From Solea solea (lineage: Eukaryota > Chordata > Actinopteri > Pleuronectiformes > Soleidae): a DNA stretch of 64,000 nucleotides. Shown here piece after piece: positions 8,849 through 64,000 of this stretch. Position 1 is the stretch's first letter, and every line of letters starts with the position of its first letter. A program made the translations under genes and the position numbers. Location of the stretch: assembly GCF_958295425.1 (NCBI RefSeq), contig NC_081154.1, forward strand, positions 21,486,540-21,550,539, in the 5' to 3' direction. The notes beneath the pieces were generated by a model, which was not told where the DNA came from, did no database searches, and saw only the letters and a list, made by a program, of their open reading frames with translations.

Positions 8849-11800
8849 TCATTTCTTTTCTTTCCCCATCAGGTGCTGTTTTGTATTCTTTTCAGGCTTC
8901 AGTAAAATAATGTAACTCTTTGGAGCAAACAGGCAGAACAATAAACCAAAGCTGGAGGCCAAGATGGCAAATGACTCAACTGCATCTGCATAATTTCCAG
9001 GCGAGCTGATATAAGCAGGGATAAATGCTAGCCACACAGCACTGAAGATCAGCATGCTGAATGTGATGAACTTGGCCTCGTTGAAGTTTCCCGGCAACTT
9101 TCGAGCCAGAAAAGCCAATACAAAGCACAGACAGGCCTGTAGACCAATATATCCAAGAACACACCAGAAGGCCAGGCTAGAGCCCACACTACACTCCACT
9201 ATAATCTTTGAATGTTCATATTGTGTATTTCTGGATGGAAACGGGGGAGCATCAATGAGCCAGGCAGCACAGATAACCACCTGAACCAGAGTACAACTAA
9301 AGATAATGGTCCTCTGTTGCTTAGGCCCCAGCCACTTCATGATGTTGTGCCCTGGCCTGGTGGCAGTGAATGCAGCCAGTACCACCAGGGTCTTCCCCAG
9401 GATGCAGGAAATACAAAGTGAAAATGTGATGCTAAAGGCAGTGTGGCGCAGCATGCAGGACCAATATGTTGGCTTTCCAATGAAAAGCAGAGAACAGAGG
9501 AAACACAGAGTCAGTGCAAACAGTATGAAGAAACTGAGCTCAGAGTTATTCACACGGACAATGGCTGTGTGTCTGTGACAGAAGAAGACTCCACAGACAG
9601 CCAGAGTGAAGCAGGCGCCCACCACAGACATCACTGTCAGGGCTATTCCTAATGAATCGAAGGTCAAGTACTCCACTTTCTTGGCGATGCAGGCTGTTCT
9701 GTCGTTGTTTGACCAGAAGTCCTCAGGACAAATTGTACAATCTACTGAGTCTAAAGGGAAGAAAGTATGAACAATTTTCAGTATTGCATTACTTCTCTAC
9801 TACAATTATATATACTTTTTATTGTTCAGCTCAAACTCACCTATCTGATTGCTAATTTTGCCACTGTCACATGGTACACAGTCAAAGCAGCAGATAGGCT
9901 CCCCACGACGGACAGCCTTCCGGGAGCCTGGAAGACAACTGGCACTGCACACAGACACTGGCACCTAGAGTGGAAAGACCATGTGGTGATATCGGTCAAT
10001 TTCATTGGTTAATCTATTGACAAGTGGAAAATTCCTCCAAACCACGTGTCAGTAAAATATTTGTTACTTCTAGTTTCTGAAGTGTGTTTAACACAGTATT
10101 TTGAGTTTTATGTCGATTAGATATATTTGATAACTATCAAACAACCTTTTGATAGTCACATGGTTACAAGCTGTACACTGAGGACTGGGTTACTGCTCAA
10201 AAGCTATTCCATAATCTCTGGTTCAGTTAAATATATTTAGCTGTAGATCTATGAGAGCTCTTTAATGTCATGAAGAATAATCCATTCATTGTCTACTGCT
10301 ATATCCTGCACATGAGGTTCGCGAGGAGCCAGAGCCAATTCCAGCTGACATAAGACAACAGTTGGGGTCAGACCCAGGACGGGTCGGATCCATGAGGAAA
10401 ACAACCATGGAAAATAGGTCATAATCACATCACAGCTGGGCTTTGAATCTTTGTTGTGTATGAAAACAAATGACCCTGTATCAGATCCAGTCTGTTCCGT
10501 CCACCTGACTTACCTCCATCTCAACCTACAGAACTTCAACAGTTGGCATCTGATGAAGGTAAAAACACAGTGTGAGCAGCTTGCCTCACTCTGATGTCCT
10601 GCCCACATTATCCTGTCCTCTTGGATCAACAGCTCCTCTCCAATAGCCTTGGTTCCATCAAACAAACCCACGTTGACAAATGCGATGTTTCCTTTTGTGC
10701 CTCTCTGCCAGTTGATGATATCAAAATAGGGTACAGAGTCGCCCTTGGCATCAAAGGCCACCTCCTCACCAGCAATCTGAAAGTTCACTTCCTGGAGGTA
10801 GTGTTGCAGCTTGAAAATTAGGAAATGCACACAATGAAACACTGAATTGCACTAAACAAGGTTTTCAGTCTTCAGAGTTTTAAGGTTTAAGGCCCCTAAA
10901 AATCCACAGCCTAAATGTGTACAGCAGTAGAAATGTAACAGAACGGTAAAGTGAACACATCACATGGAAATTAAAACATGTTGACCCACGTTGCTAGGTC
11001 AATCAACGTCAATATTGATCAGAAATAATTGCAATAATCTTTTTGGCCATAAGTGAGAAGTCCAGTGCTGTGTTTACAGAAGAGGAATTATAATTTATTA
11101 ATCCCCTTAGGGGGACACACGGTGGTGTAGTGGTTAGCACTCTCGCCTTGCAGCGAGAAGACCCGGGTTCGAGCCCCGGTTGGAACAAGGGCCTTTCTGC
11201 ATGGAGTTTGCATGTTCTCCCCGTGTGTGCGTGGGTTCTCTCCGGGTTCTCCGGCTTCCTCCCACAGTCCAAAAACATGCAATGTGGGGATAGGTAAATT
11301 GGACACTCTAAATTGACCATAGGAGTGAGTGTGAGAGTGAATGGTTGTTTGTCTGTCTCTCTATGTGGCCCTGCGATTGACTGGCGAACTGTCCAGGGTG
11401 TACCCCGCCTAGCACCCCCCGCGACCCTCTAGCAGAGGATAAAGCGGTACATGATGACTGACTGACTGACTGACTGACTTAATCCCCTTAGGGAAATTAT
11501 TTCTCTGCATTTGACCCATCCTACAATCAGGAGCAGTGGGCTGTCACACTGAGTAGCGCCCGGGGAGCAATGGGGGTTGGGTACCTTGCTCAGGGGTACC
11601 CCAGCCCTTTTGACCGGGTGGGGACTTGAACAGGCAACCCTCCAGTTACATGCCAAGTTCCCTTTCCACTTGGCCACAGGCTGCCCCACTTCACCATGGG
11701 CTGCCCATTTAAAAATATATATATTAAGATTTTTTAGAACACAGAAAATATGTATGTACAGTATGTTACATGACTTTGGGAAATGGGAGATAATTATTGT

Positions 11801-14800
11801 GGTCTGAATCCCACCGACAATAATTACAAGGCCCACCATTGGGCTTTGACCCACAGTGTGTAATGATAAAGACATAGTGGATTATACAGTACCTGCCAAG
11901 GTTGTATGTTGTTGCTCTGAGCACATGAGTTGTTCTGGAAAGGCCCCCTCCCTGGCTGACAGAGAAGGAGGTTGTGCAGAGAATGAGCAATGGCATATAC
12001 AGCCTTATAGACATTATATGCGACTCTAGGGCTGGATGTATTCATGTAGGCTGAGTGCTGTTCCAGCAGAGACTCCTGCCCTGAGCACGGTGGCATCTGG
12101 GTGACAGAGGATGGAAAAGGACTGCAGCCATACAGAGACTCCCACAACTCATGCACCAGCTCATTGTCAGGATATCTCTTAGGGTTTACTGTCTGCAGGA
12201 AGTCACCAAGTCTGGAGATATGACCGTTTCTGTTGCTAAACCCAATGGTTCCTCCCAAGTAAGGGTAATACTCTCTCCCTGAAAAGACTGATGCTTTGAC
12301 CAAGGCACTAATCGCCACCCACTGGATTCCAGTGATGTTCTGAGTCATGTAGTCTCTCAAGAAAGGTGTCATCTCCCCCTGAGTTGCAAATACCAACACC
12401 ACTTTTGCAGTAGAGCTATGCATCACCTTTACAGAGGGTCAGATAATGTAGATAACAGGGTTGTACAAGGAGACAAAAACAAAACTGAGTGACATAAAGA
12501 AATCCCAGATGTACACAGTGAAAAACAACTAGAGTTTCTATAGATCTTAGTATTATTCAATATTTAAACCCTTAATAGCAAAATAATTTATATGTCAGTG
12601 ACCAAACAGAAATCAGGAGAGACACAAATGTATGTTGCCTCTTTACATCAAAAATAAATAATAACAGGTACATTTTATTTCTTTTATGTTTTATTTAATT
12701 TGGTATACTTTTTCCACCTGTGACATTATTCATCTTCCTCTTGTTATGAGCTCTTCATTTTCTAGACATTGTCTTGTGTTTTGCAATTCTGATCCTTTTG
12801 TCTTTTTTTGATTGAAAGCACTTGTACTGACCTATTGTGGACTTAGTTAAGTGATGTTCTTGGGAAAGTTTTTTTTTATATACATGGTTACAGAGTTACA
12901 ATTCATGTCATGACTCTCTTCTCCTTTCTGGATCTAATATGGGCCTGATGAGATAAATGGATGAAAGTGAGACAAACACACAGTTTTCTCCTGGAGTGTC
13001 TAAATTGAATGACCACAGTAGGTCCACAAATATGAGCTTTAATGGCTCTATGTCTTAATATGTGTTAATATGTGTTAGCAGCACAAAGTGTCTTTAACAG
13101 AAACTCATTTACACTATAAAACTTCAGTTATTTTTTTTATAGCATCAAATCACCACTCTACCCAGTCCCTAGAGACTGTTATTATTTTATCTTGTGGTAA
13201 GAACACATTAAAGGAGCAATGGTGGGTCAGTGGTAGAGTGAACTGTCTTTCAACTGAAAGGTTGAGGGGTTGATTCCTGGCTCCATGAGTCTACATGCTG
13301 ATGTTTCTTTGGGCAAGACACTGATACTCACATTACTGTGCCAGCAGTGTGTGAATGGGTATAAAAGATGTGTGTCAAAGTGCTTTGAGTGGTCATCAAC
13401 ACTAGAAAAGCTCTATATAAGTACAGACCACTTAACATTTAAAGGTAGAAGTCAACAGCTTCCTCAGTGTTTTCATACCTTCATGATCCTTAGTCCCGCT
13501 GGGCGAGTGTAGAGTAGAGGAATCATTTCTTGGTACGCTACACATACTTTGGTGTCCTGTAATTCTCTCAGTAAACCTTTTGCAGCAAAGCGGCCATAAT
13601 CATTGTCTCCTCGCAGCAGCCCCACCCAAGTCCAGTTAAAGTGCACCAGCAGCTGTGCAATGGCTTTCACCTGGGCTCAAGAGAAAAGACAATCAACTCA
13701 CTCAGTTTCATATCACAGACATTAAAAAACTTTCATAAATGAAAAGCAATATCTTCATAAATTATTTGATGTTGTGTCCTGTTATAACATGTCTGTATTC
13801 TGTAAATGATAAAGCATGGAAGTTTGGCACAACAAATAAAAATTGATGTATTATTGGATAGGGACAATACATATAAGCATTGTTCCATCTTAATAAAATG
13901 TAAGCAGTGCTGTAAGACTCTTAAACAAGCAGAAAGATTTACAAGGAAAAAAACATCACCAAACATCAATAATGAGGATTATAACAATAAAGGATTATCA
14001 ACTGTGATTTTTGTTATGACATAACCTGAAAAGAACACTAACATAATATAAGAAAGAGGAAAACTTATATATTTAAATAAATGTCTTAGTGTTTGAAGAT
14101 TTGCCTCTTTTGTATTTATAGTTTTAATTTGACAGTTTAAAGCTTTAAAGGCAGTTGTAATACTTATTTCTGATGACAGAGTAGTAAATGTGTTGAGCTT
14201 TGACTCAAAACAATAATTGACCACATGTTTTACATTTTACCTGGTAGTCATCACTAGGAACTACTCTGAAGAAGGTTGGATATTTTTGTCTGTCTGACAA
14301 ACATGCACATGTAGAAGCGTAGCTGATCTGTGTAAAAACAGAGTGCAGTGTTACTGAGGAAAGAAGAACATTTTTGGGATGATTGACATAAATACGAGTG
14401 ACTGTTACCATGGGGATCCTGAATGTTTGCAGGATTCTTGACACAACAATAGACTGAGTAGATCCAGAAGCCCCAATCACAGCGAGGAGTGATGAGGCAT
14501 TTGTGCACATAGAAGAGTTTTCCTGACTCACTCCGTTCAGCATCGATAAAACAGCTCTCTGTCCTGTCAGTGGATATCCACATGAATCAAAGATTTTGTA
14601 GCCCAGAGTGTGATTCTGCAACAGCACTGGATTCTGGTTTATCTCCTCCACTGCCAGTCTCATAGTCTGAGCCCACCGGAAAGCCCTGGGATCAATTCTG
14701 TGGCTGATACAGATGAATGTTGTCTGTTCATTTAAAAACTCTAATGACTATAAACACATTCAGTCCATTTTATATTAAGAGTGTTGGGATTAGGAGCGTG

Positions 14801-15374
14801 ATTGGTTATGAATTTAGAATATTAATAATTAATTAATTATGGAATAATTAATTTCTTATAAAAAGTTGAGTCAAATCCTCACACGTGGCAACAATATGTT
14901 GGGCATCAACTATAGTGGCAATAATTTGATTGATAAAAATAAAGTAATAAAAGATAAAGTAATACAATATTTTAATTAAATATTTTGGAAAATTAATGAA
15001 ATGTTAATTAATTCTAGAACGGGGCACCACCCTGTAAACAGGGAAAAGACAATCAATCTATGCCTTTAAAATCAGTCTTAAATAATAACTGTAATTGACT
15101 AGGATATCAAAGATATTCCAATTTAACAGTATTGAAGGTATGAATCCGAGCACAGACCCTTTCAACCCCCATTTGTCACAGTATTCATGTACAAAAGACA
15201 TAGAGCATTCCTTCAGGTTAATAAAGTAACAATTTATTAAATCAAACAATGAAATTAATTAAACAATCATGTTCACTAAAAGTGAACACTAATGTAAAAC
15301 GACAATCTATTGGTTGAATCAACAAATATCACTTGCTAAGCTACAACAACACAGGCTATATACAACATAAACAC

Positions 15375-15409
<35 letters not shown>

Positions 15410-18400
15410 ATGTGATGTGTGTGTGTGTGTGTGTGTGTGTGAGTGTAACATGAGACAAAGATAAGATAGGGGAGTGACGCGGTTGGCCGAGCAAAGCCAC
15501 TCCCACTTCCAACACCAAAGTGGAGAAGACATGCGCAGTAGCAGTGACTGTAGACGCACGCTTCCACCAAAGATGGCGCCAGAAACACATTAACATGAGG
15601 TCGCAGATCTTGGGTCGAACATGTGATAGCATGGCTGCAGAGACACGTGTTTGACGCAAGATGGCGCCTATGAGGAGACTCTCATTCATGAATGAAAGAG
15701 AGAGAGTGAGTGAGTGAGAAAGAGAGAGAGAGAGAGAGAGAGAGTGAGTGAGAATCGCGCTTGAATAGCGGCAGACCAAAGGTGTGTTTCAAAGCACAGT
15801 GTGTTCAGTGAATGAAACAAAAGGATCGCGTACGTGAGAGTTTATGTCAGTTTAAACCACACAGACTTGACACAGGCAAAGCCAGGCCAGTCTGTGAATC
15901 TTAACGTTCATGCCGACATTCTCTCACCACGTGATCTGTCTACGCGCTCACAGCGGGAGAAGAAACGTCACTGCAGGGTGCGTTAAACATACAGGTCGAT
16001 CAAAGAAAACTATCTCACTGCGTGATCGCATGGCATGAGAAGGGAATTAACAAACGTGTGAACAAATACAAACAGTTAACAATTGTAGAACAAATACGAA
16101 CGTGTGGGTGCGCAATCCAACACGTTTAACACAAAGGAAAGTTATAAAACACAGAACCTTAACCTAACTCTGCCCAGAACACTTTGCCTCTTACTGTGAG
16201 CTGATAACACGTTTTGCGGTCCGTCGGGTCTGGTCCTGTTCATTGGAGTCGCAGAGCGTGGACGGGCCGTGGTGTGGATCACAGCGGACAGCTGATGATT
16301 CTATGCGTCGGCGGAAGACGGTAGTTTGGGCGTCTGGTTCGGAGAGAGATGTCGGCTCAGGTGCGGACATCGCGGGTCGAAGGATGGCAGCTGGCGGCTG
16401 CAGCGTCTCCATTTCAGTTCTGGAAGGATGCGTGGTTAGACGCAAATCAAGTTTCTCACTCGGGCAGCGAGTGTGAAACTGGCACGGCTTCTTCAAAAAG
16501 GGCATAGTTCGTGTGGCATGGGGCCGCATTGCCGGAGCTCTGGGCTCCAGGGCCCCGGGGGCCCTTTGGGCGGCCCCCGAAGGAGAAGAGCCCCAGGAGA
16601 GCAAAAATAGGAAGAGTGGAGGACAAAGAGAAGTAGGAAGAGGAACACAAAGAGAACGAAAAATGTCTGTCCTCTGGTTTTATAGTGTTTTCGGGGGAAG
16701 GCCATAAAACAGAGAACGGCCAATGAGATTCACTGACCCTATGGAATGCTGACCAGTCGTAAAACCAAGAATGTCCCAAATGGTGGACTGAGACTTTGTT
16801 GAAAACTCAAATCAGGCTTTTGAAACTGCATGTAGGCCTTACCCATGGAGAACAATAGAAAAGTGGATTACAGTAGACATCTCGGCCCCAACAGTCCCCC
16901 TTTTGGTCTGAAGGCTGGGATGCCGGTCGCAGGGTTCAGAGCAACCGAAGGGCTGAGATGCCGGTGTGGTCTGCCGGTGTTAACGGCTGTCAACAGTTCG
17001 GGTTCTGAATGGCACGGTCCATACTCCAGGGGTCATTGAAAAGACCAAAGTCCATCAGTCCCTAGAGTTGAGAGTGGGCACAGTTCATAGTCCTAAGGGT
17101 TAACAGTTCAGATGCTTAACAGTAAGAGGGTTGTGTCTGGGCAACCTTGAGGCACATCTGGGCAGATGTAATAAGCTAAGTTAGCTAGTGATATACACAT
17201 TACAACAGTCAGAAAACATACACAATCACACAGTCCTTAAATTTTTGCTGTTGGTCCAAGAGAGGCACCTAGGGAAGTGTAAGGTGCTCGGTGGAAGGGA
17301 CTGCAAGCAGAAAGGAGACAGGACAGTGTGAGGTTGGCTTAACCTCAAAGTGGTTAGTAGTAGCCAAAGAGTTTTCAGGCTATTTGTGTATCAGTAAATG
17401 CAATGTGCAACGAGAGCCGTGATGGCCCAGCAGCTAAGGAGAAGGCCAAGTGCAGTAAGCTAGATTGTCTCTATAACAGGCCTGTTTAGGTGACCAAGCC
17501 TGTGGTTTCAGTACTTTTGGGACTGAAACTCACCATTTAGTTCCCTCTGCAATAAGTTGCTGATGGAAGGTGGTGTTTACTGTGATGTGACCGTTAAAAT
17601 GGCGTCCACAATTTTGATCTCCCAGTCTTGTTGATTGGAGTCAAGGTGAGTGGAGGCCTAGGTCATCAACATGCACAATGGTTCCTGGAGGAACCCCTGA
17701 GAGAAAAACAATCTATTTTTGGCAGGTTCAACTTAGTAGCTGTGTCATGCCGGTCACGCCATCAGGACACCGTTCACTTTACCTGAGTCTTTGTGTCTGG
17801 TTTCTTGAACAGACATGCAACCCTGGCACATGTACTCAGATGCAGAAATTCTGAGACTACACAGATAATTGGTTATTGGGACACACCCAGTGACTATCTA
17901 TTGTTTAGGTGCGCAGGTTCAGAGTCAGGAAAAGTGAGGGATCCTCATTGTGAAATGCGAGGAGGTGTTTCAGTTGCACATGTGTGTTGACCTTTCCAAC
18001 AATCGACGTAGAGCACGGATTTCAAGTGACACACGTACTCTAGTCCGATGATTAGAAGGTTCAGTAAAAGTCCTATCTCTAACCTGTAGGTTTCAAAGAT
18101 AGGGATTGCACTGCCAAGACTGCGTGAGAGGTGTACCTGAGAGACAACAACCAAAGTGGTGGTGGAGGTAAGGATCTATTCGACCAGGTCAAGTGGGACT
18201 GAATAAGGAGGGTTTTACCTCTACTTTAAGTCACTGACGGGCGAGCTGACTTCTCTGTTCAAAGTCCTGCATAAGAGTCCTAACTACACACAAAAGTTTC
18301 AATCTTCTCAGACCCTCTGACAGAGTCCTTCTGACATGCAATGATGTTGAGTGGAGGTTACTCCTAAACAATCTAATAGACTTATTGAGCTGGTTCTTAT

Positions 18401-21400
18401 AAATGGTTGGTGCATGCTGACAAGGTAGGGCACACAACCTTGTAAGTGGTGAGGTGAACAGTAATGTGTTTCCCATTCATTGGGTGAGAGAGAGAGAGAG
18501 AGCTCCAGCACTGGTTGCTGGAACCTGCTTCCCCCTTTCCGGATGTGGAAAACGGCTTATAGGTTCAAATAAAACAATGGTTGACAAAAAAAACACATTA
18601 AACGAAGACTTCAGGGCCAGGAGTAGGCTCTGAGCAAGAAGCTTGAATCGGTGAGGAGCAGCTGGTTTCTTGGCAGCAGCCACTTTGTTATTCGCGATTT
18701 AACAAAATGCTAGCTGGACCAAAAACTAAGGTGGAGTTACCTGAGCTAAAATGTGACATGGTCGGCAGTCACAAGCAGAGAAACCATTGAGGAGATTCTC
18801 ACCGATGTGCAAAGAATCTGTTGTTGAAAACACAGATGTGGATGGGGTGCACTAAGGTCAAACCCCTGAAAGTTCAAGTCACTTTACACGTGCTATGTGA
18901 TCAAGGACTCGTCCTATTTGTAGCCCATGATGCTGGGACTACAAGATTTTGTCCACAGAGGTTTGCTTAAAGTGAGCCTTTAACAAACATGCTTGAACAT
19001 GTCAGGTGGATTTGGAGCCTGACTCAAGAAGTGCAAAGTGAGTACATCCCCCTTTACCACCACGGAGATGCATGAATCATGCACGTTACCCTGGGAAATG
19101 AGTTCACCTGGGAAAGAAAGAAGAAGGAAGGGTTGAAGTGCTAGTAAGTGTAGGTGGAGAGGGGACCCAGCCTCCTCCGCTTCTCTTCCCCACCCAACAA
19201 AGTCCAGCTTTGTGGCTGAGTTAGGCGGAGTCTGGCTTAGTCCACATCAGTGTCCAGGCTTCTCTGGCAGACACTGGGCTTTACCTTATGTCTGGCAAAG
19301 AAGCTACACACACACTGTCGGATCCAGTCCTCTACTTCTGACGTGGCAACTTCAGTTTTCTGCCGCTCGGCATACTTCCCTTGCTCTTCTGGTTCTATGC
19401 TGGCTTGTCTGGCAAACAGCATGTCAAGAAAGCTTATGACCCTGGACTCTGTTTCTGGTGATTCTTAGCTAGTCGCCGAGCCTTGTGCTCTTGCACCAGA
19501 AGCAGTTGTCTAAGTAGGTCCGAGATAGTGCGTTTCGGTTTGCCTACTGGGTCAGTGAGGGGCTTGAGGAGGTTTTATCTCCTCAGGTGAGTTTATTCAG
19601 GATGGGCTAGCCACTATGTCCTGTGAGACGAAAGTGGTCACATCACTGGCGTTTTGAGCGGTGCCGTTAGAGTTCCTTGGCGGGCTCATCTTCGTTCAGC
19701 TCAGCTGCTGACATGGCGGGCTAGGGTTCAACACAGACCACGTTATCCTGTGTCCTAGGGCGATGCAGAGCTTCCTTAAGGAGCTGAGCGTGCACAGGGA
19801 ACATCGTCCTGTGGCTAACAGGGTGCCGCAGTTTCTGTACTGGGCTAGGCGCAAGGAGAATTGACCTGTGGCCTATAAGTGGTCACAGCTACCTGTGTAG
19901 GCTGGGACAATGCACGGGGAAAAAACATCCGGTGACTAACAGTACCGCAGTTACTGTGAACTGGACTAGGCGCAGGGAGATTGACCCGTGGCCTGTAAAT
20001 GGTCGCGGCTATCTTCGTGGGCGGGGACCATGCACGGGGAAAAACGTCCCGTGACTCACTAGCAGGGTGCAGGGGAAAGTCCGCCTGGCCTGAATAAATA
20101 AACAGCCACAGCTCTTTGTAGCTGGGCTGTGAACAGGGGAATGTCCACCCGTAACTCAAGATGTACCACAGTTCCTGTGAACTGGGGTAGGTGCAGGGAA
20201 AGCTCAACCTGGCTTAAATAAATAACAACCACAGCTCTTTATAGCTGGGTTGTGCATGGGGAAATGTCCTCCCATGGCTCGCTAGATGCCACAGTTCCTG
20301 TGAACTGGGCTAGGCGCAGGGAAAGCTCGACCTGGCCTATCTAAAATGAACAGCCACAGCTCTTTGCAGCTGGGCGGTACACGGGGGAAAGTCCTCCCGT
20401 GATTCACTAAATGCCACAGTTCCTGTGAACTGGGCTAGGCGCAGGGAAAGCTCGACCTGGCCTAAATGAATGACAGTGAGCTACTGTATTAGCTAAACTG
20501 TGCACGGTTATTGTGTCAGTTATGTTTAACTAACTGCTAAAGAGGTATATCAGAGATCAAACCACTTAGCACACAATATTAAAAGTATTCAAATCTGATC
20601 AAATTATCACGATTGAATGGCAGGGTGACCACCAGCAATCGGGCACCAGTCAATAGCTTAGCCAGTTAACAATTTCCACCAGGTTTCGGAGATAGACATC
20701 CAGAAACCGGTCAAAAATTGAAACAAGCTAAGGTAACATGCTAACACACGGGACAATTTTAGCAGGTTTCGGTGCTAGACCTTAAGAAACCAATCAAAAT
20801 CATAATAAGCTAGGTTAGCATGCCAACATGCTAACACATGCTAATATGCTAACATATGCTAACACACGCCAACACACGCTTAGCAGTAGCAATACACCAT
20901 CAGGAAGGTTTGGTTTACCCAGCAGTCAAATTCAAGGAATTTAGGAGGCGAAACTCCAAACATTCTGGAAATTTAACACAATATCTGGTGTTTTGTACAT
21001 GTACAGTTGTGACAAAGTTGGTATATTTAAGGGCCTCACACGGGGCACCAATATGTTGGGATTAGGAGCGTGATTGGTTATGAATTTAGAATATTAATAA
21101 TTAATTAATTATGGAATAATTAATTTCTTATAAAAAGTTGAGTCAAATCCTCACACGTGGCAACAATATGTTGGGCATCAACTATAGTGGCAATAATTTG
21201 ATTGATAAAAATAAAGTAATAAAAGATAAAGTAATACAATATTTTAATTAAATATTTTGGAAAATTAATGAAATGTTAATTAATTCTAGAACGGGGCACC
21301 ACCCTGTAAACAGGGAAAAGACAATCAATCTATGCCTTTAAAATCAGTCTTAAATAATAACTGTAATTGACTAGGATATCAAAGATATTCCAATTTAACA

Positions 21401-21646
21401 GTATTGAAGGTATGAATCCGAGCACAGACCCTTTCAACCCCCATTTGTCACAGTATTCATGTACAAAAGACATAGAGCATTCCTTCAGGTTAATAAAGTA
21501 ACAATTTATTAAATCAAACAATGAAATTAATTAAACAATCATGTTCACTAAAAGTGAACACTAATGTAAAACGACAATCTATTGGTTGAATCAACAAATA
21601 TCACTTGCTAAGCTACAACAACACAGGCTATATACAACATAAACAC

Positions 21647-21681
<35 letters not shown>

Positions 21682-23488
21682 ATGTGATGTGTGTGTGTGT
21701 GTGTGTGTGTGTGAGTGTAACATGAGACAAAGATAAGATAGGGGAGTGACGCGGTTGGCCGAGCAAAGCCACTCCCACTTCCAACACCAAAGTGGAGAAG
21801 ACATGCGCAGTAGCAGTGACTGTAGACGCACGCTTCCACCAAAGATGGCGCCAGAAACACATTAACATGAGGTCGCAGATCTTGGGTCGAACATGTGATA
21901 GCATGGCTGCAGAGACACGTGTTTGACGCAAGATGGCGCCTATGAGGAGACTCTCATTCATGAATGAAAGAGAGAGAGTGAGTGAGTGAGAAAGAGAGAG
22001 AGAGAGAGAGAGAGAGTGAGTGAGAATCGCGCTTGAATAGCGGCAGACCAAAGGTGTGTTTCAAAGCACAGTGTGTTCAGTGAATGAAACAAAAGGATCG
22101 CGTACGTGAGAGTTTATGTCAGTTTAAACCACACAGACTTGACACAGGCAAAGCCAGGCCAGTCTGTGAATCTTAACGTTCATGCCGACATTCTCTCACC
22201 ACGTGATCTGTCTACGCGCTCACAGCGGGAGAAGAAACGTCACTGCAGGGTGCGTTAAACATACAGGTCGATCAAAGAAAACTATCTCACTGCGTGATCG
22301 CATGGCATGAGAAGGGAATTAACAAACGTGTGAACAAATACAAACAGTTAACAATTGTAGAACAAATACGAACGTGTGGGTGCGCAATCCAACACGTTTA
22401 ACACAAAGGAAAGTTATAAAACACAGAACCTTAACCTAACTCTGCCCAGAACACTTTGCCTCTTACTGTGAGCTGATAACACGTTTTGCGGTCCGTCGGG
22501 TCTGGTCCTGTTCATTGGAGTCGCAGAGCGTGGACGGGCCGTGGTGTGGATCACAGCGGACAGCTGATGATTCTATGCGTCGGCGGAAGACGGTAGTTTG
22601 GGCGTCTGGTTCGGAGAGAGATGTCGGCTCAGGTGCGGACATCGCGGGTCGAAGGATGGCAGCTGGCGGCTGCAGCGTCTCCATTTCAGTTCTGGAAGGA
22701 TGCGTGGTTAGACGCAAATCAAGTTTCTCACTCGGGCAGCGAGTGTGAAACTGGCACGGCTTCTTCAAAAAGGGCATAGTTCGTGTGGCATGGGGCCGCA
22801 TTGCCGGAGCTCTGGGCTCCAGGGCCCCGGGGGCCCTTTGGGCGGCCCCCGAAGGAGAAGAGCCCCAGGAGAGCAAAAATAGGAAGAGTGGAGGACAAAG
22901 AGAAGTAGGAAGAGGAACACAAAGAGAACGAAAAATGTCTGTCCTCTGGTTTTATAGTGTTTTCGGGGGAAGGCCATAAAACAGAGAACGGCCAATGAGA
23001 TTCACTGACCCTATGGAATGCTGACCAGTCGTAAAACCAAGAATGTCCCAAATGGTGGACTGAGACTTTGTTGAAAACTCAAATCAGGCTTTTGAAACTG
23101 CATGTAGGCCTTACCCATGGAGAACAATAGAAAAGTGGATTACAGTAGACATCTCGGCCCCAACAAGAGTGCAAAATTAGACATAATTCACAGGAAAAAG
23201 TAAATCAAATGCTCCCACGATCATCTATGAAACTCACCCATTGCAATTTATTGGTGGTGGTCTGTAGGTGCCGTTAAGGTCTGGTATTTTCAGATTAAAA
23301 TGAATGGGGAAAATCCCACCGATGACATAGTCACCCTGGACCACAAAGCCTGGCTGGAAGCTGTTTAGAAGAGTGCACTTTGAGGCTGCTGGTGCAGCTG
23401 CAGTGCTGATGCTGGAAAGTAAGCTATCAGTTAAAGTGAGGACACTGACAGCAAAGTAAAGCAAACACAATAAAGCAAGTGAAGTCAT
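8849..23488 (-). CDS. V2R-type (OlfC) olfactory chemoreceptor, gene 1, eight exons
   Basis: Class C GPCR, plasma membrane of olfactory sensory neurons by family. Inferred exons on the minus strand: 23488-23238, 14703-14409, 14327-14241, 13670-13479, 12426-11893, 10809-10585, 9964-9841, 9750-8849. These sum to 2610 nt (869 codons plus stop) with matching phases. Residues 1-25 form a signal peptide. The Venus-flytrap ligand domain follows, with SYAST and PSDDYQ at the positions of the amino-acid-binding residues of CaSR relatives. A cysteine-rich domain comes next ([34 protein letters not shown]), then seven membrane segments from about residue 600 and the C-terminal [14 protein letters not shown]. 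Odd points: introns inside exons 2 and 3, a GC donor after exon 4, and an 8.4-kb LTR element in intron 1. The ligand is unknown, most likely an amino acid. Confidence 0.88.
10290..10400 (-). repeat. SINE 3'-end relic in intron 4
   Basis: Minus strand matches the 3' part of the tRNA-derived SINE at 11102 (GCTGGAATTGGCTCTGGC, CGCGAACCTCATGTGC, then AATGAATGG). The same relic lies at about 39135-39240 (copy 2) and 59620-59720 (gene 3), so it is older than the duplications. Confidence 0.6.
11102..11484 (+). mobile_element. tRNA-derived SINE
   Basis: The head has RNA polymerase III boxes like a tRNA (A box TGGTGTAGTGGTTAGC, B box GGGTTCGAGCCCC). It is followed by a long unrelated body (TGCATGTTCTCCCCGTG, TCCGGCTTCCTCCCAC) and a (TGAC)n-type tail. 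It sits between exons 3b and 4 of gene 1 and is absent at that place in gene 3, so it arrived after the duplication. It is not a working tRNA gene, because the anticodon arm does not lead to a proper acceptor end. Confidence 0.75.
11485..11697 (-). mobile_element. tRNA-derived SINE, second family
   Basis: Minus strand starts with a tRNA-like head (A-box-like TGGCCAAGTGG, B-box-like TTGCCTGTTCAAGTCCCC), continues through AGGTACCCAACCCCCATTGC and ends TTTCCCTAAGGGGATT. It abuts the preceding SINE end to end. Confidence 0.65.
12427..13478 (-). other. Extra intron inside the ligand-domain exon (exon 3) of gene 1
   Basis: Minus strand AAG|GTATGA at 13479/13478 and CTGTAAAG|GTGATG at 12427/12426, phase 0, joining LRIMK to [10 protein letters not shown]. 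In CaSR and mammalian V2R genes this exon is continuous. The intron holds a SINE at 13205-13440; the rest (12430-13200) is AT-rich with no gene. The equivalent in gene 3 is 61202-62598. Confidence 0.7.
13205..13440 (+). mobile_element. tRNA-derived SINE in the extra intron
   Basis: tRNA-like head (GTGGGTCAGTGGTAGAG and GGGTTGATTCCTGG) with a body and the tail GTGCTTTGAGTGGTCATC ... CTCTATATAAGTACAG. Present also in gene 3 (62275-62560) and in pieces in copy 2 (about 42840-42930 and 43180-43235), so it predates the duplications. Confidence 0.7.
14328..14408 (-). other. 81-nt extra intron inside exon 2 of gene 1
   Basis: Minus strand ATG|GTAACA ... TTTTACACAG|ATC. Without removal the frame would read 27 extra codons between RIPM and ISYAST, two blocks that are adjacent in other class C receptors. 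The length is a multiple of three and has no stop, so retention would also give a readable protein. The same intron sits at 63324-63404 in gene 3. Confidence 0.7.
14778..14781. repeat. Left target-site duplication AGAG
   Basis: AGAG lies just before TGTTGGG and is repeated at 23166-23169 just after CCCCAACA. Gene 3 shows the empty site (ATTAAGAGTGCAAAATTAG), which proves a clean insertion. Confidence 0.85.
15233..15238 (-). promoter_or_regulatory. Polyadenylation signal AATAAA in the LTR
   Basis: Minus strand AATAAATTG; the same signal is at 21505-21510 in the other LTR. It is in sense with the receptor gene and so could end host transcripts inside intron 1. Confidence 0.4.
16678..16685 (-). 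promoter_or_regulatory. TATA box in the LTR
   Basis: Minus strand CTATAAAACC, about 210 nt inside the LTR from its 5' side; the copy in the 5' LTR is at 22950-22957. This would place U3 at roughly 240 nt, with a long R/U5. Confidence 0.5.
16894..16910 (-). other. Polypurine tract of the LTR element
   Basis: Minus strand ACCAAAAGGGGGAC directly precedes the 3' LTR (TGTTGGGG). This is the normal place and composition of the plus-strand primer, and fixes the orientation. Confidence 0.75.
16911..19759 (-). other. Non-coding interior of the LTR element
   Basis: About 2.8 kb with no frame longer than about 80 codons and nothing I recognise as gag or pol on either strand. Moderately GC-neutral, non-repetitive. 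Confidence 0.6.
19760..20510. repeat. ~120-bp tandem array, six units, each with several small hairpins
   Basis: The units share CAGTTCctgtGAACTG, CAGCTctttgcAGCTG, TAGGC..GCCTA and a CACGGG..CCCGTG stem. Stem starts at 19793, 19913, 20033, about 20134, 20255 and 20380 give a spacing near 120. It lies 0.5-1.3 kb downstream of the primer-binding site in the element's own direction, the leader region where packaging signals sit. The 120-codon open frame across it (minus 20207-19845) is a by-product of the repeats. Confidence 0.8.
20740..20885. repeat. Short degenerate repeat of GCTAACA(T/C)
   Basis: ATGCTAACA-type words repeat irregularly about 8-10 times. Low complexity; no further role visible. 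Confidence 0.5.
21033..21050 (-). other. Primer-binding site of the LTR element
   Basis: Minus strand TGGTGCCCCGTGTGAGGC starts three bases after the 5' LTR ends, as expected of a tRNA primer site (TGG pairs with tRNA CCA). I could not assign the tRNA from memory. Confidence 0.75.
21054..23165 (-). repeat. Right LTR (5' LTR of the minus-strand element)
   Basis: Second LTR, apparently base-for-base the same as the left one; all open frames in it translate identically. Provides the promoter: TATA box on minus at 22950-22957. Confidence 0.9.
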
Positions 23489-23549: not shown

Positions 23550-23990
23550 GCTACAGTATCACATTCTCAGTCTTGCATCTTATTGATGACAGAGTGGCTT
23601 TGGATTGGACAGTAGTCCACAATCAGGAATTAAAGTGGGTTAATGAAAACTGTGGGGAAAAAGCTGAGGACCTAAACAAAGAGAATTCTCGCTGCAAGGC
23701 GAGAGTGCTAACCACTACACCACTGGTAGCCCCATATGATAATGTACCTGTTATTATTTATTTTTGATGTAACGAGGGCAACATACATTTGTGTCTCTCG
23801 TGATTTCTGTTTGGTCACTGACATAAAGATGAAAGTAAAGACTCAACTACTGTACTTTTCCTTTAGAGCTGATTTTGTCATGACCCCAGGAACTTTTCTC
23901 CTCGACATTAAATATTGCATGTTTTTCCATTTTATATTAAGGTGTTTGGGTCTCTGTTTAGTATTTCTGACAAATGTTCAAGTACTTGTT
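23550..23990. other. Upstream flank of gene 1
   Basis: Holds a minus-strand tRNA-like SINE scrap (about 23690-23735, CGAGAGTGCTAACCACTAC) and AT-rich sequence. No gene seen. Confidence 0.4.
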
Positions 23991-24328
23991 GTGTACTAGA
24001 TGGTGTGCTAATATGTGTACTAGATGTTGTGCTAATATGTGTACTAGATGTTGTGCTAATATGTGTACTAGATGTTGAGCTAATATGTATACTAGATGTT
24101 GTGCTAATATGTGTACTAGATGTTGTGCTAATATGTGTACTAGATGTTGTGCTAATATGTGTACTAGATGTTGTGCTAATATGTGTACTAGATGTTGTGC
24201 TAATATGTGTACTAGATGTTGTGCTAATATGTGTACTAGATGTTGTGCTAATATGTGTACTAGATAGTGTGCTAATATGTGTACTAGATGTTGAGCTAAT
24301 ATGTGTACTAGATGTTGTGCTAATATGA
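23991..24328. repeat. 24-bp minisatellite, about 14 copies
   Basis: Unit GTGTACTAGATGTTGTGCTAATAT, nearly perfect, with single changes (GTTGAG, GGTGTG, AGTGTG). Because 24 is a multiple of three, all frames stay open and produce false repeat proteins on both strands. Confidence 0.95.
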
Positions 24329-35758: not shown

Positions 35759-36231
35759 GAGTCATCACTCCCAACTCACTTCTGCTTGGCCGTGCTGGGC
35801 CTAGCGGGGACTCTCGAGGGTTCGAATACCTGACTTACCCCGTGGCGCGCCTGAGAGCGGTCCAGATCGAGGTCGACAAGTTCTGGAAGCGGTGGAGCCA
35901 GCTGGCGGGCCCGGGCCTCTTCGTCCGACAGAAGTGGCACACACCCGCAAGGAACGTCACAGTGGGAGACTTAGTGTGGTTGGTTGGTTGACCAGAATGC
36001 ACTGAGAGGCCAGTTTAGGCTCGGTCGAGTTGTGGAGGCCCATCCTGATGTGAAAGGCATAGTACGAGATGTGAAAGTGAGGACGTGCCAGAGTTGCCCA
36101 GTTTTCAGTGGACAAAGTGGGAAAGGCAAAGAGAAGGTGAACTGTCCCTCCACCATCCTTCACAGAGATGTCAGAAGGCTGGTGGTTCTGTTACCAGTGG
36201 AGGAACAGAAATAGATTCCCCACCACATGAT

Positions 36232-36497
36232 GGTGTGTTTCGGAAAAAGGGATCAAGACCCCCCCCCACCATCCTCCACGAGAGGGTGGTGGTGTGTTTC
36301 GGAAAGAAAAAGGATCAAGACCCCCCCTCCACCATCCTCCACGAGAGGTGGTGGTGTGTTTCGGAAAGAAAAAGGATCAAGACCCCCCCCCTTCACCATC
36401 CTCCACGAGAGGTGGTGGTGTGTTTCGGAAAGAAAAAGGATCAAGACCCCCCCCTCCACCATCCTCCACGAGAGGCTGGTGGTGTGTTTCGGTAAAG
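36232..36497. repeat. ~62-bp minisatellite in the BEL/Pao 3' region
   Basis: Four units of TGTGTTTCGGAAAGAAAAAG, then GATCAAGACC, a C-run, and ACCATCCTCCACGAGAGG with varying C-run length. Follows the end of pol directly. Confidence 0.9.
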
Positions 36498-36565: not shown

Positions 36566-36800
36566 GTGTAATACGTTCGTACCTAGCGATGTAGCTTTAT
36601 GTACCCATTTGAAAGGTAAAAAATTGGGTGTAATACGTTCGTACCCAGCGATGTAGCTTTATGTACCCATTTGAAAGGTAAAAAATTGTGTGTAATACGT
36701 TCGTACCCAGCGATGTAGCTTCATGTACTCATTTAAAAGGTAAAGTCGTGTGTAACACGTTCGTACCCAGCGATGTAGCCATTTCGAAAGGCAAAATTTG
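36566..36800. repeat. 62-bp tandem repeat before the BEL/Pao LTR
   Basis: Units begin GTGTAATACGTTCGTACC at 36566, 36628, 36690 and about 36749; the last is shortened. Confidence 0.9.
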
Positions 36801-40999: not shown

Positions 41000-42592
41000 T
41001 CCGGCAGCACTTCGACTGAGATGGTCTACCAACCATACATTCATCTCCTTCTCTATCCTCTTTCACCCCTCTATCTCATTATCAAGTTCTTTCCCTAATA
41101 ACCTCTGCCCGCCCCACCTCCTGCCCCCTTGACCTTATCCGTTCTCATCTTCTTCAGTCAATTGCTTCTGATCTTCTTCCTTTCCTCACCCATCTCATTA
41201 ACACATCTCTATCATCTGGTTGTTTTCCGGACTCTCCTAAAGAGGCCAGAGTGACCCCCCTCCTTAAAAAACCCACCCTTGACCCGTCTGAAGTAAATAA
41301 CTACAGACCTGTCTCTCTTCTTCCTTTTCTTTCCAAAACTCTGGAGCCTGCTATATTTAATCAACTCTCCTCCTACCTTCACCGGAACAACCTTCTTGAT
41401 CCACTTCAGTCTGGTTTTAAAGCAGGTCACTCGACCGAAACTGCACTTCTTGCTGTCACTGAGCAACTCCACACTGCCAGGGCTGCCTCTCTGTCTTGTC
41501 AAACGCTCCTTTCTGCAGCGTTTGACACAGTTAACCACCAGATCCTTACTTCCTCTTGGTTCTGTTATTCACTCTCATGGTTTTTTACTATCACAGCTAC
41601 GCCGATGACACCCAACTCATTCTCTTTTTTCCCAGCTCTGAAACACATGTAGCAGAACGGATCGCCGCTTGTCTGACCGACATCTCTCAGTGGATGTCTG
41701 ACCATCACCTGAAACTCAATCTCGACAAGACTGAGTTTCTTTTTCTCCCAGGAAAGGGCTCTCCCACCACAGACCTGACCATCACCCTCGACAACTCTGT
41801 GGTAGATCCTTCTCATACCACAAGGAACCTGGGTGTGACACTTGATGACCATCTCTCCCTCACTGCCAACATTGCTCCAACAGCTCGATCTTGCAGATAC
41901 ATGTTGCACAACATCAGAAGGATACGGCCTCTTCTAACCCAGAAGGCGGCACAGGTTCTGGTACTGCAACTCCCTCCTGGCTGGTCTCCCTGCGTGTGCC
42001 ATACGACCTCTGCAACTCATCCAGAAGGCAGCAGCTCGACTGGTCTTCAACTTACCAAAATTCTCCCACACTACACTGCTCCTCCGCTCCCTTCACTGGC
42101 TTCCTGTAGCTGCTCGCATCCGCTTCAAAACTCTTATGCTTGCATTCCATGCTACAAACGGATCCGGTCCAGTTTACATCCAGGACATGATCAAAACCTA
42201 CACCCCACCCTGCCCACTCCGCTCTGCCTTGGCAAATCGGCTTGCTGCCCCCTCACTGAGTGGATTGCAGAAGAACTCGAGACTGTTCACTGTCCTGGCT
42301 CCCAAATGGTGGAACAAACTCCCCATCGACATCAGGACAGCAGAAAGCCTCCACTTCTTCCGCTGCCGACTAAATACACATTTCTTCTGACTCTACCTCG
42401 ACTAAGAAAACAACAACAAAAAATAAATAAATCACTTGCTTATACATCACATTTATGACTAGCACTTTATAGTTTGGCTTACTTGAAGCTCATACTTACT
42501 TCTAGCACTTGTTTGTACCCAGATGTTTAAATGCACTTATTGTAAGTCGCTTTGGATAAAAGTGTCTGCTAAATGACATGTAATGTAATGTA
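41000..42592 (+). mobile_element. LINE RT fragment (L2/CR1 group) with ATGTA-repeat tail
   Basis: RT motifs: ARVTPLLKKPTLDPSEVNNY, RPVSLLPFLSKTLEPAIF, GFKAGHSTETALLAV, then a deletion taking out the central palm, then YADDTQLILFFP, RNLGVTLDDHLSL and, in another frame, FHATNGSGPVYIQDM to RCRLNTHFF. The 3' end is TGTAAGTCGCTTTGGATAAA, AGTGTCTGCTAAATGAC and ATGTAATGTA repeats, the tail also used by SINEs nearby. Inserted in intron 3 of receptor copy 2, replacing exon 3b. Confidence 0.8.
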
Positions 42593-61100: not shown

Positions 61101-64000
61101 ATTCCAGTGATGTTCTGAGTCATGTAGTCCCTCAAGAAAGGGGTCATCTCCCCCTCAACTGCAAATACCAACACCACTTTTGCAGTAGAGCTACGCATCA
61201 CCTTTACAGAGGGTCAGATAATGTAGATAACAGGGTTGTAAAAGGAGACAAAAACAAAACGAGTGACATAAAGAAAAACCCAGATGTACACAGTGAAAAA
61301 CTACAGTTTCGATAGACCTTAGTATTATTTGATATTTCAACCCTCAACAGCAAAATAATTTCTGTAACGCCATAATAATCTTCCTCTAGTCCTTTTATTT
61401 CTTTTATGTTTAATTTATTTGGTATACTTTTTCCTTGTGTATTTTTGTTTGGGTCTTTTTTAATGTCTTGTATGTGTGTAAAAAAAATGTCACCAGTTGG
61501 TGTCAGACAAATAAAGTTTCTATTGTATTCATTTTGAAGAAAGTACTTACTTTAACAAAGTCAGTTTTTCCTGTTGTACGTCGGTACTAACATTGTCTAT
61601 TGACTTCACACAATGAGATTTTCTACTCTGCCCCAATAGTTCCACCTGTAACATTATTCATCTGACTCTTGTTATGAGTGCTTCATTTTCTGGACATTGT
61701 CTTGTGTTTTACAATTCTGATGCTTTTGTCGTTTTTTGATTGAAAGCACAAGTACTGACCTATTGTGAACTTAATTAAATGATGTTCTTGGGAATTTTTT
61801 TTTTTTTTTTTATACATGGTTACAGAGTTACAATTCATGTCATGACTCTCTTCTCCTTTCTGGATCTAATATGGGCCTGATGAGATAAATGGATGAAAGT
61901 GAGACAAACACACAGTTTTCTCCTGGAGTGTCTAAATTGAATGATCACAGTAGGTCCACAAATAGGAGCTTTAATGGCTCTATGTCTTAATATGTGTTAA
62001 TATTTGTTAGCAGCAAAAGGTTTCTTTAACAGAAACTCATTTACACTATAAAACAACTTCAGTTAATTTTTTATAGCATCAAATCACCACTCTACCCAGT
62101 CCCTAGAGGCTGTTATTATTTTATCCTGTGGTAAGAACCCATTAAAGGAGGGTTGAAGAGACATCATGGTCACAAGTTCAACTCCACCCATGGCAGGTTG
62201 TACTTAATTCCCTTGTAAGTCGCTTTGGATAAAAGTGTCTGCTAAATGACATGTAATGTAATGTAATCAGTGGTAGAGTGAACTGTCTTTCAACTGAAAG
62301 GTTGAGGGGTCGATTCCTGGCTCCATGAGTCTACATGCTGATCTTTCTTTGGGCAAGACACTGAACCTCACATTACTGTGCCAGCAGTGTGTGAATGGGT
62401 ATGAAAGATGTGTTATAAAAAAAAAAACTGCTCCACATAGATGCAATATGTAGATGTTTGAATTTATGTGAATGGTTGAATGACAAAAACTGTAGTTTAA
62501 AGCAGCTAGTGGTCATCACCACTAGAAAATCTCTATATAAATATAGACTACTTAACATTTAAAGGTAGAAGTCAACAGTTTCCACAGTGTTTTCATACCT
62601 TCATGATCCTTAGTCCCGCCTGGCGAGTGTAGAGCAGAGGAATAATTTCTTGGTACGCTACACATACTTTGGTGTCCTGTAATTCTCTCAGTAAACCTTT
62701 TGCAGCAAAGTGGCCATAATCATTGTCTCCTCGCAGCAGCCCCACCCAAGTCCAGTTAAAGTGCACCAGCAGCTGTGCAAAGGCTTTCACCTGGGCTCAA
62801 CAGAAAAAGACAATCAACTCACTCAGTTTCATGTCACAGACATTAAAAAACTTTCATAAATGAAAAGCAATATCTTCATAAATTATTTGGTGTTGTGCCC
62901 TGTTATAACATGTCTGTATTCTGTAAATGATAAAGCATGGAAGTTTGGCACAACAAAGAAATATATAATAAGGATTATAACAATAAAGGATTATCAACCG
63001 TGATTATTATAATGACCAAACCTGAAAAGAACACTAACATAATATAAGAGAGAGGAAAACTTATATATATAAATCAATTTCTTAGTGTTCAAAGATTTGC
63101 CTCTTTTTTATTAATAGTTTTAATTTGACAGTTTAAAGCTTTAAAGGCAGTTGTAATACTTATTTCTGATGACAGAGTAGTAAATGTGTTGAGCTTTGAC
63201 TCAAAACAATAATTGACCACATGTTTCACATTTTACCTGGTAGTCATCACTAGGAATTACTCTGAAGAAGGTTGGATATTTTTGTCTGTCTGACAAACAT
63301 GCACATGTAGAAGCGTAGCTGACCTGTGTAAAAACAGATTGCAGTGTTACTGAGAAAAGAAGAACATTTTTGTGATGATTGACATAAATACAAGTCACTG
63401 TTACCATGGGGATCCTGAATGTTTGCAGGGTTCTTGACAAAATAATAGACTGAGAAGATCCAAAAGCCCCAATCACAGCGAGGAGTGATGAGGCATTTGT
63501 GCACATAGAAGAGTTTTCCTCACTCACTCCGTTCAGCATCGATAAAACAGCTCTCTGTGCTGTCAGTGGATATCCACATGAATCAAAGATTTTGTAGCCC
63601 AGAGTGTGATTCTGCAACAGCATTGGATTCTGGTTTATCTCCTCCACTGCCAGTCTCATAGTCTGAGCCCACCGGAAAGCCTTGGGATCAATCCTGTGGC
63701 TGATACAGATGAATGTTGTCTGTTCATTTAAAAACTCTAATGACTATAAACACATTCAGTCCATTTTATATTAAGAGTGCAAAATTAGACATTATTCACA
63801 CTATCATCTATGAAACTCACCCATTGCAATGTATTGGTGCTGGTCTGTAGGTGCCGTTAAGGTCTGGTATTTTCAGATTAAAATGAATGGGGAAAATCCC
63901 ACCGATGACATAGTCACCCTGGACCACAAAGCCTGGCTGGAAGCTGTTTAGAAGAGTGCACTTTGAGGCTGCTGGTGCAGCTGCAGTGGTGATGCTGGAA
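58190..64000 (-). CDS. V2R-type (OlfC) olfactory chemoreceptor, gene 3, exon 1 cut by the window edge
   Basis: Same plan as gene 1. Exons on minus: from beyond 64000 to 63821 (exon 1, signal-peptide end not in window), 63699-63405, 63323-63237, 62790-62599, 61201-60668, 60196-59972, 59319-59196, 59091-58190. Lengths after exon 1 are 295, 87, 192, 534, 225, 124 and 902, identical to gene 1, with matching phases and no stop. Conserved parts: [35 protein letters not shown], the seven membrane segments, and [14 protein letters not shown]. In the last exon I see one residue differing from gene 1 over 275 (SSLAFW versus SSLVFW). More differences lie in the ligand-binding part (for instance TQGEM versus VEGEM, and NRNGH versus IRIGH). 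No LTR element in its intron 1. Probably functional. Confidence 0.88.
61430..61620 (+). repeat. Retroposon 3'-end scrap in gene 3 intron
   Basis: GTCACCAGTTGGTGTCAGAC and ACAAATAAAGTTTCTATTG look like a LINE or SINE 3' end; not present in gene 1 at this place. Confidence 0.4.
62150..62275 (+). mobile_element. 5'-truncated SINE/LINE tail inside the extra intron of gene 3
   Basis: ACATCATGGTCACAAGTTC through TAAGTCGCTTTGGATAAA to ATGTAATGTAATGTAAT. It interrupts the older SINE, which is whole at 13205 in gene 1, so it arrived after the duplication. Confidence 0.7.
62276..62560 (+). mobile_element. Older tRNA-derived SINE in gene 3 intron
   Basis: Counterpart of 13205-13440 (CAGTGGTAGAGTGAAC, GGGTCGATTCCTGG, CTCTATATAAATATAG). 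Confidence 0.65.

What the first reader, a model, noticed from the sequence alone, without database searches (positions are those of the whole stretch)
19760..20510. Tandem hairpin array with paired base changes inside a gag-pol-less LTR element
Six ~120-bp units each carry short stems. In one stem both sides change together: CACAGG/CCTGTG (19793-19798, 19808-19813), CACGGG/CCCGTG (20033-20038, 20048-20053; also 20380-20385, 20396-20401) and CATGGG/CCCATG (20255-20260, 20271-20276). Two different positions of the stem thus show compensatory change (A-T for G-C, T-A for C-G). Other stems (CAGTTC/GAACTG, CAGCT/AGCTG, TAGGC/GCCTA) stay perfect. Two units (near 19913 and 20134) are imperfect. The array lies in the transcribed leader, 0.5-1.3 kb after the primer-binding site. 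A selected RNA structure, such as a packaging or dimerisation signal recognised by a helper element's Gag, would explain this. This is inference beyond the seen pairing.
Basis: partly seen in the sequence, partly recalled or inferred. Interest (0 to 1): 0.85.

Follow-up and report, generated by a model that had tools for sequence, protein, structure and literature searches.

The report
Amplified RNA hairpins in retrotransposon leader
A fish-like genome carries a recently mobile transposon that codes for no protein but whose RNA leader holds a many-times-repeated pair of hairpins whose pairing appears to be kept by selection, possibly a handle by which it is packaged by another element's proteins.

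Summary
The element is on the minus strand: identical 2112-bp LTRs, AGAG target duplication, PBS 21034-21050, polypurine tract, no long frame. The array (19758-20464) has six units of about 120 nt, built of two paralogous ~60-nt modules with two hairpins each. Unit-like matches occur in 13 of 20 searched sources. At 24 modelled pairs 90% of cells pair against 70% in a CpG-preserving phylogenetic null, with 16 against 8 covarying pairs (both 0/500). Strand preference is not significant.

Three full copies have LTR pairs identical over all bases held, so this non-coding element moved recently, in trans. A family with a gag-like frame (no pol frame in the two copies read) shares its PBS and the last ~112 bp of its LTR, perhaps a recombination trace of co-packaging; but its leader lacks the array. 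So a signal copied from the helper is not supported by the one partner found; a packaging or dimerisation handle peculiar to the parasite is my best guess, unproven.

The parts
21054..23165 (-). 5' LTR (2112 bp) of the element, sense on the minus strand; TGTTGG...CCAACA
   Evidence: identical to 14782-16893 at offset 6272
14782..16893 (-). 3' LTR
14778..14781 (.). target-site duplication AGAG, low side
   Evidence: AGAG directly before 14782
23166..23169 (.). target-site duplication AGAG, high side
21034..21050 (-). primer-binding site TGGTGCCCCGTGTGAGG (elongator tRNA-Met by recall, not tested against a tRNA gene)
   Evidence: the site next to CAACA occurs 23 times in the genome, reversed-pattern control 0
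16894..16904 (-). polypurine tract AAAAGGGGGAC before the 3' LTR
21054..21165 (-). LTR tail (LTR 2001-2112), 93% identical over 113 columns to the LTR tail of the gag-like family; begins with a PBS-like remnant (21149-21165)
20340..20464 (-). array unit U1: hairpins A, B, C, D
20217..20339 (-). array unit U2
20093..20216 (-). array unit U3
19996..20092 (-). array unit U4, lacks hairpin B
19876..19995 (-). array unit U5
19758..19875 (-). array unit U6
19730..19754 (-). lone hairpin after U6, possibly a partial seventh unit
20515..20534 (-). leader hairpin GTTAGTTA/TAACTGAC; two older copies (L012, L017) have GTTGGTTA/TAACCAAC
20682..20708 (-). leader hairpin GGTTTC/GAAACC (copy b)
20765..20791 (-). 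leader hairpin GGTTTC/GAAACC (copy a)
19712..19714 (-). ATG 15 nt after the last hairpin, opening a very short frame; possible relic of a gag start
   Evidence: inference
19437..19574 (-). gag-like remnant (46 codons) matching residues 54-94 of protein P0025 (41% identity over 41 residues)
   Evidence: E 4e-7 against the 27 proteins plus the L070 frame
18705..18873 (-). gag-like remnant matching residues 442-498 of P0023 in two adjoining pieces
   Evidence: tblastn E 7e-6 against the element's internal region

Best explanation
The array is a tandemly amplified RNA structural module in the 5' leader of a recently mobile, protein-less LTR retrotransposon of a fish-like genome. The basic module is about 60 nt: one hairpin with a ~10-nt loop ending in pyrimidines, and one hairpin with a bulged pyrimidine in its 3' arm; two modules make the ~120-nt unit. 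Shown: the anatomy, further genomic copies, pairing and two-sided change beyond a CpG-aware phylogenetic null, recent movement without coding capacity. Inferred: the folded RNA is selected because it brings the element's transcript into particles made by another element (Gag binding and/or dimerisation), the repetition giving avidity. Inferred from a shared LTR tail and PBS: RNAs of this element and of a gag-like family have met in one particle.
For: Unit-like matches in 13 of 20 sources. 24 modelled pairs, 37 rows: 90.5% of cells paired vs 69.5% in a CpG-preserving phylogenetic null, 16 vs 8.3 covarying pairs, 50 vs 19.3 cells, each 0/500; two-sided changes on internal branches 9.8 vs 0.6, reached in 0 of 200 null replicates. 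All 34 pairs on a MAFFT alignment (hairpin D columns shifted by hand), 29 rows: 86% vs 63% paired, 0/1000; 11 vs 5.0 covarying pairs, 11/1000; 41 vs 10.6 cells, 0/1000. Refolding every null alignment: sense energy -7.95 vs -0.63 (sd 1.13), 0/400. Slid partners pair 21-41% vs 90%. Hairpin B loop ACAG in 26 of 29 rows; bulged pyrimidine in 24 of the 25 B rows (of 28) and 23 of the 24 D rows (of 30) that form both flanking pairs; 32 of 32 A loops and 30 of 33 C loops end in at least 3 pyrimidines. Position between PBS and a possible gag-start relic. LTR pairs identical over the bases held in three non-coding full copies. Shared LTR tail and PBS with the gag-like family.
Against: The gag-like family has no array unit in its leader. 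Preference for G-U over A-C intermediates is not significant: 0.33 of null replicates are as extreme. The number of further standard pair types does not exceed the null (22 vs 21-23) and the RNAalifold covariance term alone is not significant (325/400 nulls as low). The antisense strand also beats its null (3/400). The array is on the whole not more conserved between copies than neighbouring element sequence. Local folding is only moderately low. No binding or packaging data.
Confidence: 0.5

Rival explanations
1. Ordinary repeat decay: a unit that happened to be palindromic was amplified by slippage or template switching and now drifts; apparent compensation is CpG decay on both arms.
Against: CpG-preserving phylogenetic nulls are exceeded for pairing and two-sided change; two-sided changes at pairs 92-116, 91-117 and 97-111 are by my reading of the alignment not CpG on both arms; retained bulge and loop.
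Confidence: 0.2
2. Nuclear-export or translation element (constitutive transport element or IRES-like) in the leader of an unspliced RNA.
For: Leader position just before a possible relic start codon; pyrimidine-ended loops and a bulged pyrimidine.
Against: No long coding frame is left to translate; no Rfam match inside the element at gathering thresholds; no functional data.
Confidence: 0.15
3. DNA-level function: palindromic protein-binding sites or an enhancer array downstream of the promoter.
For: Both strands beat their nulls in consensus folding, the plus strand has the lower raw energy, and there is no significant strand asymmetry.
Against: Single-base bulges and asymmetric loops at fixed places are not expected of symmetric DNA sites; relative to shuffles the minus strand is the more exceptional (z -8.4 vs -4.5).
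Confidence: 0.1
4. Templated mutation: reverse transcriptase switching between the two arms copies changes from one arm to the other, making compensatory pairs without selection.
For: Two-sided changes are frequent on internal branches (9.8 vs 0.6 in the null); the element replicates by reverse transcription.
Against: One-sided G-U states are also common at several pairs; retained loop and bulge are not explained.
Confidence: 0.05

Closest known systems
ETn / MusD (mouse)
   Same: Protein-less LTR element moved by a coding relative; passages of PMC6466679 seen say that coding-competent MusD provides the machinery for ETn.
   Different: Here only the last ~112 bp of the LTR and the PBS are shared with the gag-like family, and the leader array is absent from it.
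BARE2 / BARE1 (barley)
   Same: Element without Gag packaged into particles; passages of PMC3735527 seen link this to conserved dimerisation and packaging signals in BARE2.
   Different: A plant Copia element; there the signals are conserved with the relative, here the array is not found in the partner.
VL30 (rodents)
   Same: Retroelement RNA packaged into MoMLV virions; passages of PMC4859993 seen.
   Different: The rat VL30 signal is described there as a 68-bp stretch (not found conserved in mouse VL30); here a module repeated about twelve times.
LARD and TR-GAG classes (recalled)
   Same: Long non-coding LTR element; gag-only LTR element for the partner family.
   Different: Described mainly in plants (recalled); I recall no leader hairpin array in them.

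Membership tests
Non-autonomous LTR retrotransposon (LARD-like) | Two LTRs, TSD, PBS and PPT | tested here: met
Non-autonomous LTR retrotransposon (LARD-like) | No gag-pol coding capacity | tested here: met
   ten different frames scanned, no credible Pfam match (best E 0.088), longest minus-strand internal frame 122 aa
Non-autonomous LTR retrotransposon (LARD-like) | Recent mobility | tested here: met
   LTR pairs with 0 mismatches in three copies: over 2112, 1706 and 1747 compared bases (the last two 3' LTRs are held only in part)
ETn/MusD- or BARE2-like parasite with coding partner | Coding partner sharing LTR and PBS | tested here: inconclusive
   PBS and LTR tail only are shared with a family with a gag-like frame; no pol frame in the two copies read
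ETn/MusD- or BARE2-like parasite with coding partner | Leader signal shared with the partner | tested here: not met
   no array unit in the partner leaders searched (six loci, the L070 leader again); other possible partners unread
Retroviral packaging/dimerisation signal | Structured RNA between PBS and gag start | tested here: inconclusive
   structure supported; the gag start is only inferred from a relic
Retroviral packaging/dimerisation signal | Binds Gag and raises RNA content of particles | not testable with these tools
   needs experiment
Constitutive transport element / IRES | Export or cap-independent translation activity | not testable with these tools
   needs experiment; no Rfam match inside the element
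Gag protein (partner frame) | Capsid fold | tested here: inconclusive
   AF2 model mean pLDDT 71; the weak Foldseek hits include Arc, HIV, RSV and PEG10 capsid domains beside unrelated helical proteins, none below E 0.3; no Pfam match

The most novel reading that the evidence does not exclude
A protein-less retrotransposon has evolved its own packaging handle by multiplying a two-hairpin RNA module about twelvefold, so that it wins capsids from a gag-bearing element whose leader lacks the module, and has in turn acquired that element's LTR tail and primer site by template switching inside shared particles.
Probability: 0.3. Interest if true: 0.8.

Novelty: new variant of a known kind. Interest (0 to 1): 0.62.

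Why it matters
How non-coding retroelements get into particles made by others is worked out for few pairs, and the best-known ones rest on a signal shared with the helper. Here a candidate pair lies in one genome with a natural series of array lengths (six units down to about one), a possible recombination trace between the two, and a module whose pairing can be tested by stem-breaking and stem-restoring changes in vitro. If the array is a packaging handle it would be a case of a parasite amplifying its own recognition element.

Tried and rejected
Presence only in this copy: rejected.

Choice of pairs: one search counted 34 pairs. Model R1 keeps 24 of them; I left out three outer pairs of hairpin A (1-30, 3-28, 5-26, where A-C cells are common) and seven of hairpin D (89-119 and 90-118, paired in 21 and 12 of 30 rows, and the five inner pairs, which the automatic alignment does not hold in register) after seeing those counts, so percentages on R1 pairs are favourable. 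One search used all 34 pairs, but on an alignment whose hairpin D columns I had shifted by hand to fit the pairing, and with 6 of 35 short rows dropped.

Strand choice from wobble intermediates: in four helices (A inner, B, C, D outer) internal branches show 8.2 G-U against 1.3 A-C events and terminal branches 7 against 7; over all six helices it is 8.2 against 7.3, and over R1 pairs 9.4 against 3.8, not significant.

Autonomous copy with the same whole LTR: the LTR search listed 44 matches and scored 40 of 226 candidates; pairs of LTRs appear only on C41, C2 and C29. I fetched the 3' flank of 20 of these LTR places; none shows PBS or leader; the rest were not read. Frames of 70-110 aa or more in other fetched relatives showed nothing that I could assign to this element; these were judged by eye, not all scanned. 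Exact B-hairpin pattern in viral contigs: 0. Nine literature searches: no listed title or abstract describes such an array; most subscription papers are not held. The genome search with the P0025 protein did not complete.

Full report
What is there. The window comes from a 642-Mb genome of 211 contigs, fish-like by my reading of its content; the five named relatives among the 27 relatives of the partner protein below are fish. Two identical 2112-bp direct repeats at 14782-16893 and 21054-23165 begin TGTTGG and end CCAACA and are flanked by AGAG on both sides. On the minus strand the higher copy is followed by a primer-binding site at 21034-21050 (elongator tRNA-Met by my recall) and the lower copy is preceded by a polypurine tract. 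The 4160-bp internal region has no minus-strand frame above 122 aa and ten different frames gave no credible Pfam match (best E 0.088).

Array anatomy. Six units (U1-U6, 20464 down to 19758) and a lone hairpin at 19730-19754. U1-U3 carry hairpins A, B, C and D clearly; U4 lacks B; U5 and U6 are imperfect. The two halves AB and CD are paralogous: in the 8 units that I picked for the test, 0 to 18 of 1000 dinucleotide shuffles reach the local alignment score. So the module is about 60 nt: a hairpin with a ~10-nt loop whose 3' side is pyrimidine (32 of 32 A loops, 30 of 33 C loops end in at least three), then a hairpin with a bulged pyrimidine in its 3' arm (24 of the 25 B rows, of 28, and 23 of the 24 D rows, of 30, that form both flanking pairs), B having loop ACAG in 26 of 29 rows. 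A C-G pair present in hairpin C is missing on both sides in hairpin A of U1-U4 and present on one side only in U5-U6 (alignment; my reading).

Copies. The genome search with the array gave 16 matches. Fetched neighbourhoods show the order LTR - PBS - leader - array - internal sequence - LTR in L009 and L010 and parts of it in older copies. The covariance model gives 48 matches in 20 sources; 47 lie in arrays or array fragments of 13 sources, some of them weak, and one is a weak match elsewhere in the window (11590-11703, E 0.017). LTR pairs have 0 mismatches in the window copy over 2112 bases and in L009 and L010 over the 1706 and 1747 bases held: all three moved recently without coding for a particle protein.

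Is the pairing selected? From 42 unit hits (35 distinct) I counted 34 pairs. With the 29 rows of at least 85 letters, 86% of cells pair against 62-63% in nulls that replay the same substitutions at random places on the tree, with or without keeping CpG context (0/1000 each); covarying pairs are 11 against 5.4 (7/1000) and 5.0 (11/1000), covarying cells 41 against 11 (0/1000), while the number of further pair types is no higher than in the nulls (22 against 23.2 and 21.4). Letting RNAalifold choose the structure for every null alignment, the observed sense energy is -7.95 against -0.63 (sd 1.13; 0/400) and the antisense energy -5.84 (3/400), while the covariance term alone is not significant (325/400). 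On the model-fitted alignment 18 of 24 pairs vary on both sides, 90.4% of cells pair and slid controls pair 21-41% (the weak window match included); in the tree test on it (37 rows; 4 rows dropped, 7 identical) 90.5% against 69.5%, 16 against 8.3 pairs, 50 against 19.3 cells, all 0/500, and two-sided changes on internal branches 9.8 against 0.6 (0 of 200). Each alignment has a bias towards the structure: that is fitted to it and its pair list was trimmed after seeing counts; that has hairpin D columns shifted by hand.

Against. Less open to that reading are cases in hairpin D: CG and UA at 92-116, GC to AU at 91-117. If sense RNA were the selected molecule, G-U should outnumber A-C intermediates on internal branches: 9.4 to 3.8 there, and 15.0 to 15.2 on terminal branches, in the expected direction but not significant against the null (0.33). 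Local folding of 120-nt windows is only moderately low in the array, the plus strand has the lower raw folding energy, and conservation between copies is on the whole no higher in the array than beside it.

The rest of the leader. Hairpins GGTTTC/GAAACC occur twice upstream; GTTAGTTA/TAACTGAC of the young copies is GTTGGTTA/TAACCAAC in L012 and L017, again with a two-sided change, while L011 has lost the pairing in part. In L033 a relative has repeated a segment with GAAACC four times and shows no array unit. A copy 96-98% identical inside (L040) has lost LTR end, PBS, leader and array in the 3.2 kb held.

A partner. The pattern LTR end plus PBS occurs at 23 places (control 0), 3 of them the known full copies. 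I read 6 of the other 20: L069 is an LTR end with a duplicated tail; L070, L071, L073 and L074 belong to one other family and L072 shares pieces of its leader. L070 and L071 carry stop-to-stop frames of at least 410 and 403 codons whose first ATG lies about 740 nt after the PBS. Its 27 relatives are 273-688 aa long; Pfam is silent on the L070 frame; the weak structural matches of its model include Arc, HIV, RSV and PEG10 capsid domains beside unrelated helical proteins, none significant: gag-like, not proven. From there to the end of the 3' LTR (1411 nt, 100% identical to the 5' one in the C2 copy) the frame continues for 164 and 171 codons in the C2 and C4 copies and no longer frame follows. 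Its LTR shares with the window element only the last ~112 bp (93%), starting at a PBS-like remnant; LTR matches of older copies of the array family stop about 95 bp earlier, at that remnant. The simplest reading is a template switch at the primer site between RNAs in one particle (inference; which family gave to which is not shown). Remnants in the window element match another subtype of the same protein family: 41% over 41 residues of P0025, E 4e-7, with weaker matches to P0020-P0023 and P0026. The partner's leader holds no array unit.

Verdict. A real hairpin array, present in many copies of one recently mobile parasite element, with pairing that looks constrained. The packaging reading is the best mechanism available but rests on position and on the co-packaging inference; the shared-signal version was tested on the one partner found and not met. 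Papers: passages of PMC4859993, PMC3735527 and PMC6466679 were seen; the others were seen as search listings only.

Noticed in passing
window 21054-21165 and 14782-14893; L012, L014, L017, L019, L034-L036, L069: LTR tail growth: the young LTR carries a relic PBS at LTR 2001-2017 followed by ~95 bp that LTR matches of older copies lack; L069 shows the tail module twice in a row.
   Followed up: partly
L033:4580-5290: A relative whose leader repeats another hairpin-bearing segment (GGTTGTTCAGCACTGAAACC) four times.
   Followed up: partly
L040 (C30:27559873-27563097): Copy 96-98% identical inside but lacking everything from within the LTR to just past the array.
   Followed up: no
G000 C25:30033031-30629972: Six LTR fragments at intervals of about 77-259 kb, 95% identical to the window LTR, as if carried by a large segmental duplication.
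   Followed up: no
L070, L071, L075-L077: LTR element with only a gag-like frame: 5' and 3' LTR identical over 1411 nt in the C2 copy, C2 and C4 copies 97.7-99.1% identical in the pieces read.
   Followed up: partly
window 42529-42582 and 62202-62255: UnaL2 LINE 3' hairpins (Rfam RF00436).
   Followed up: no
window 23990-24327, 36231-36497, 36566-36779: Tandem arrays of 24, 64 and 62 bp units.
   Followed up: no
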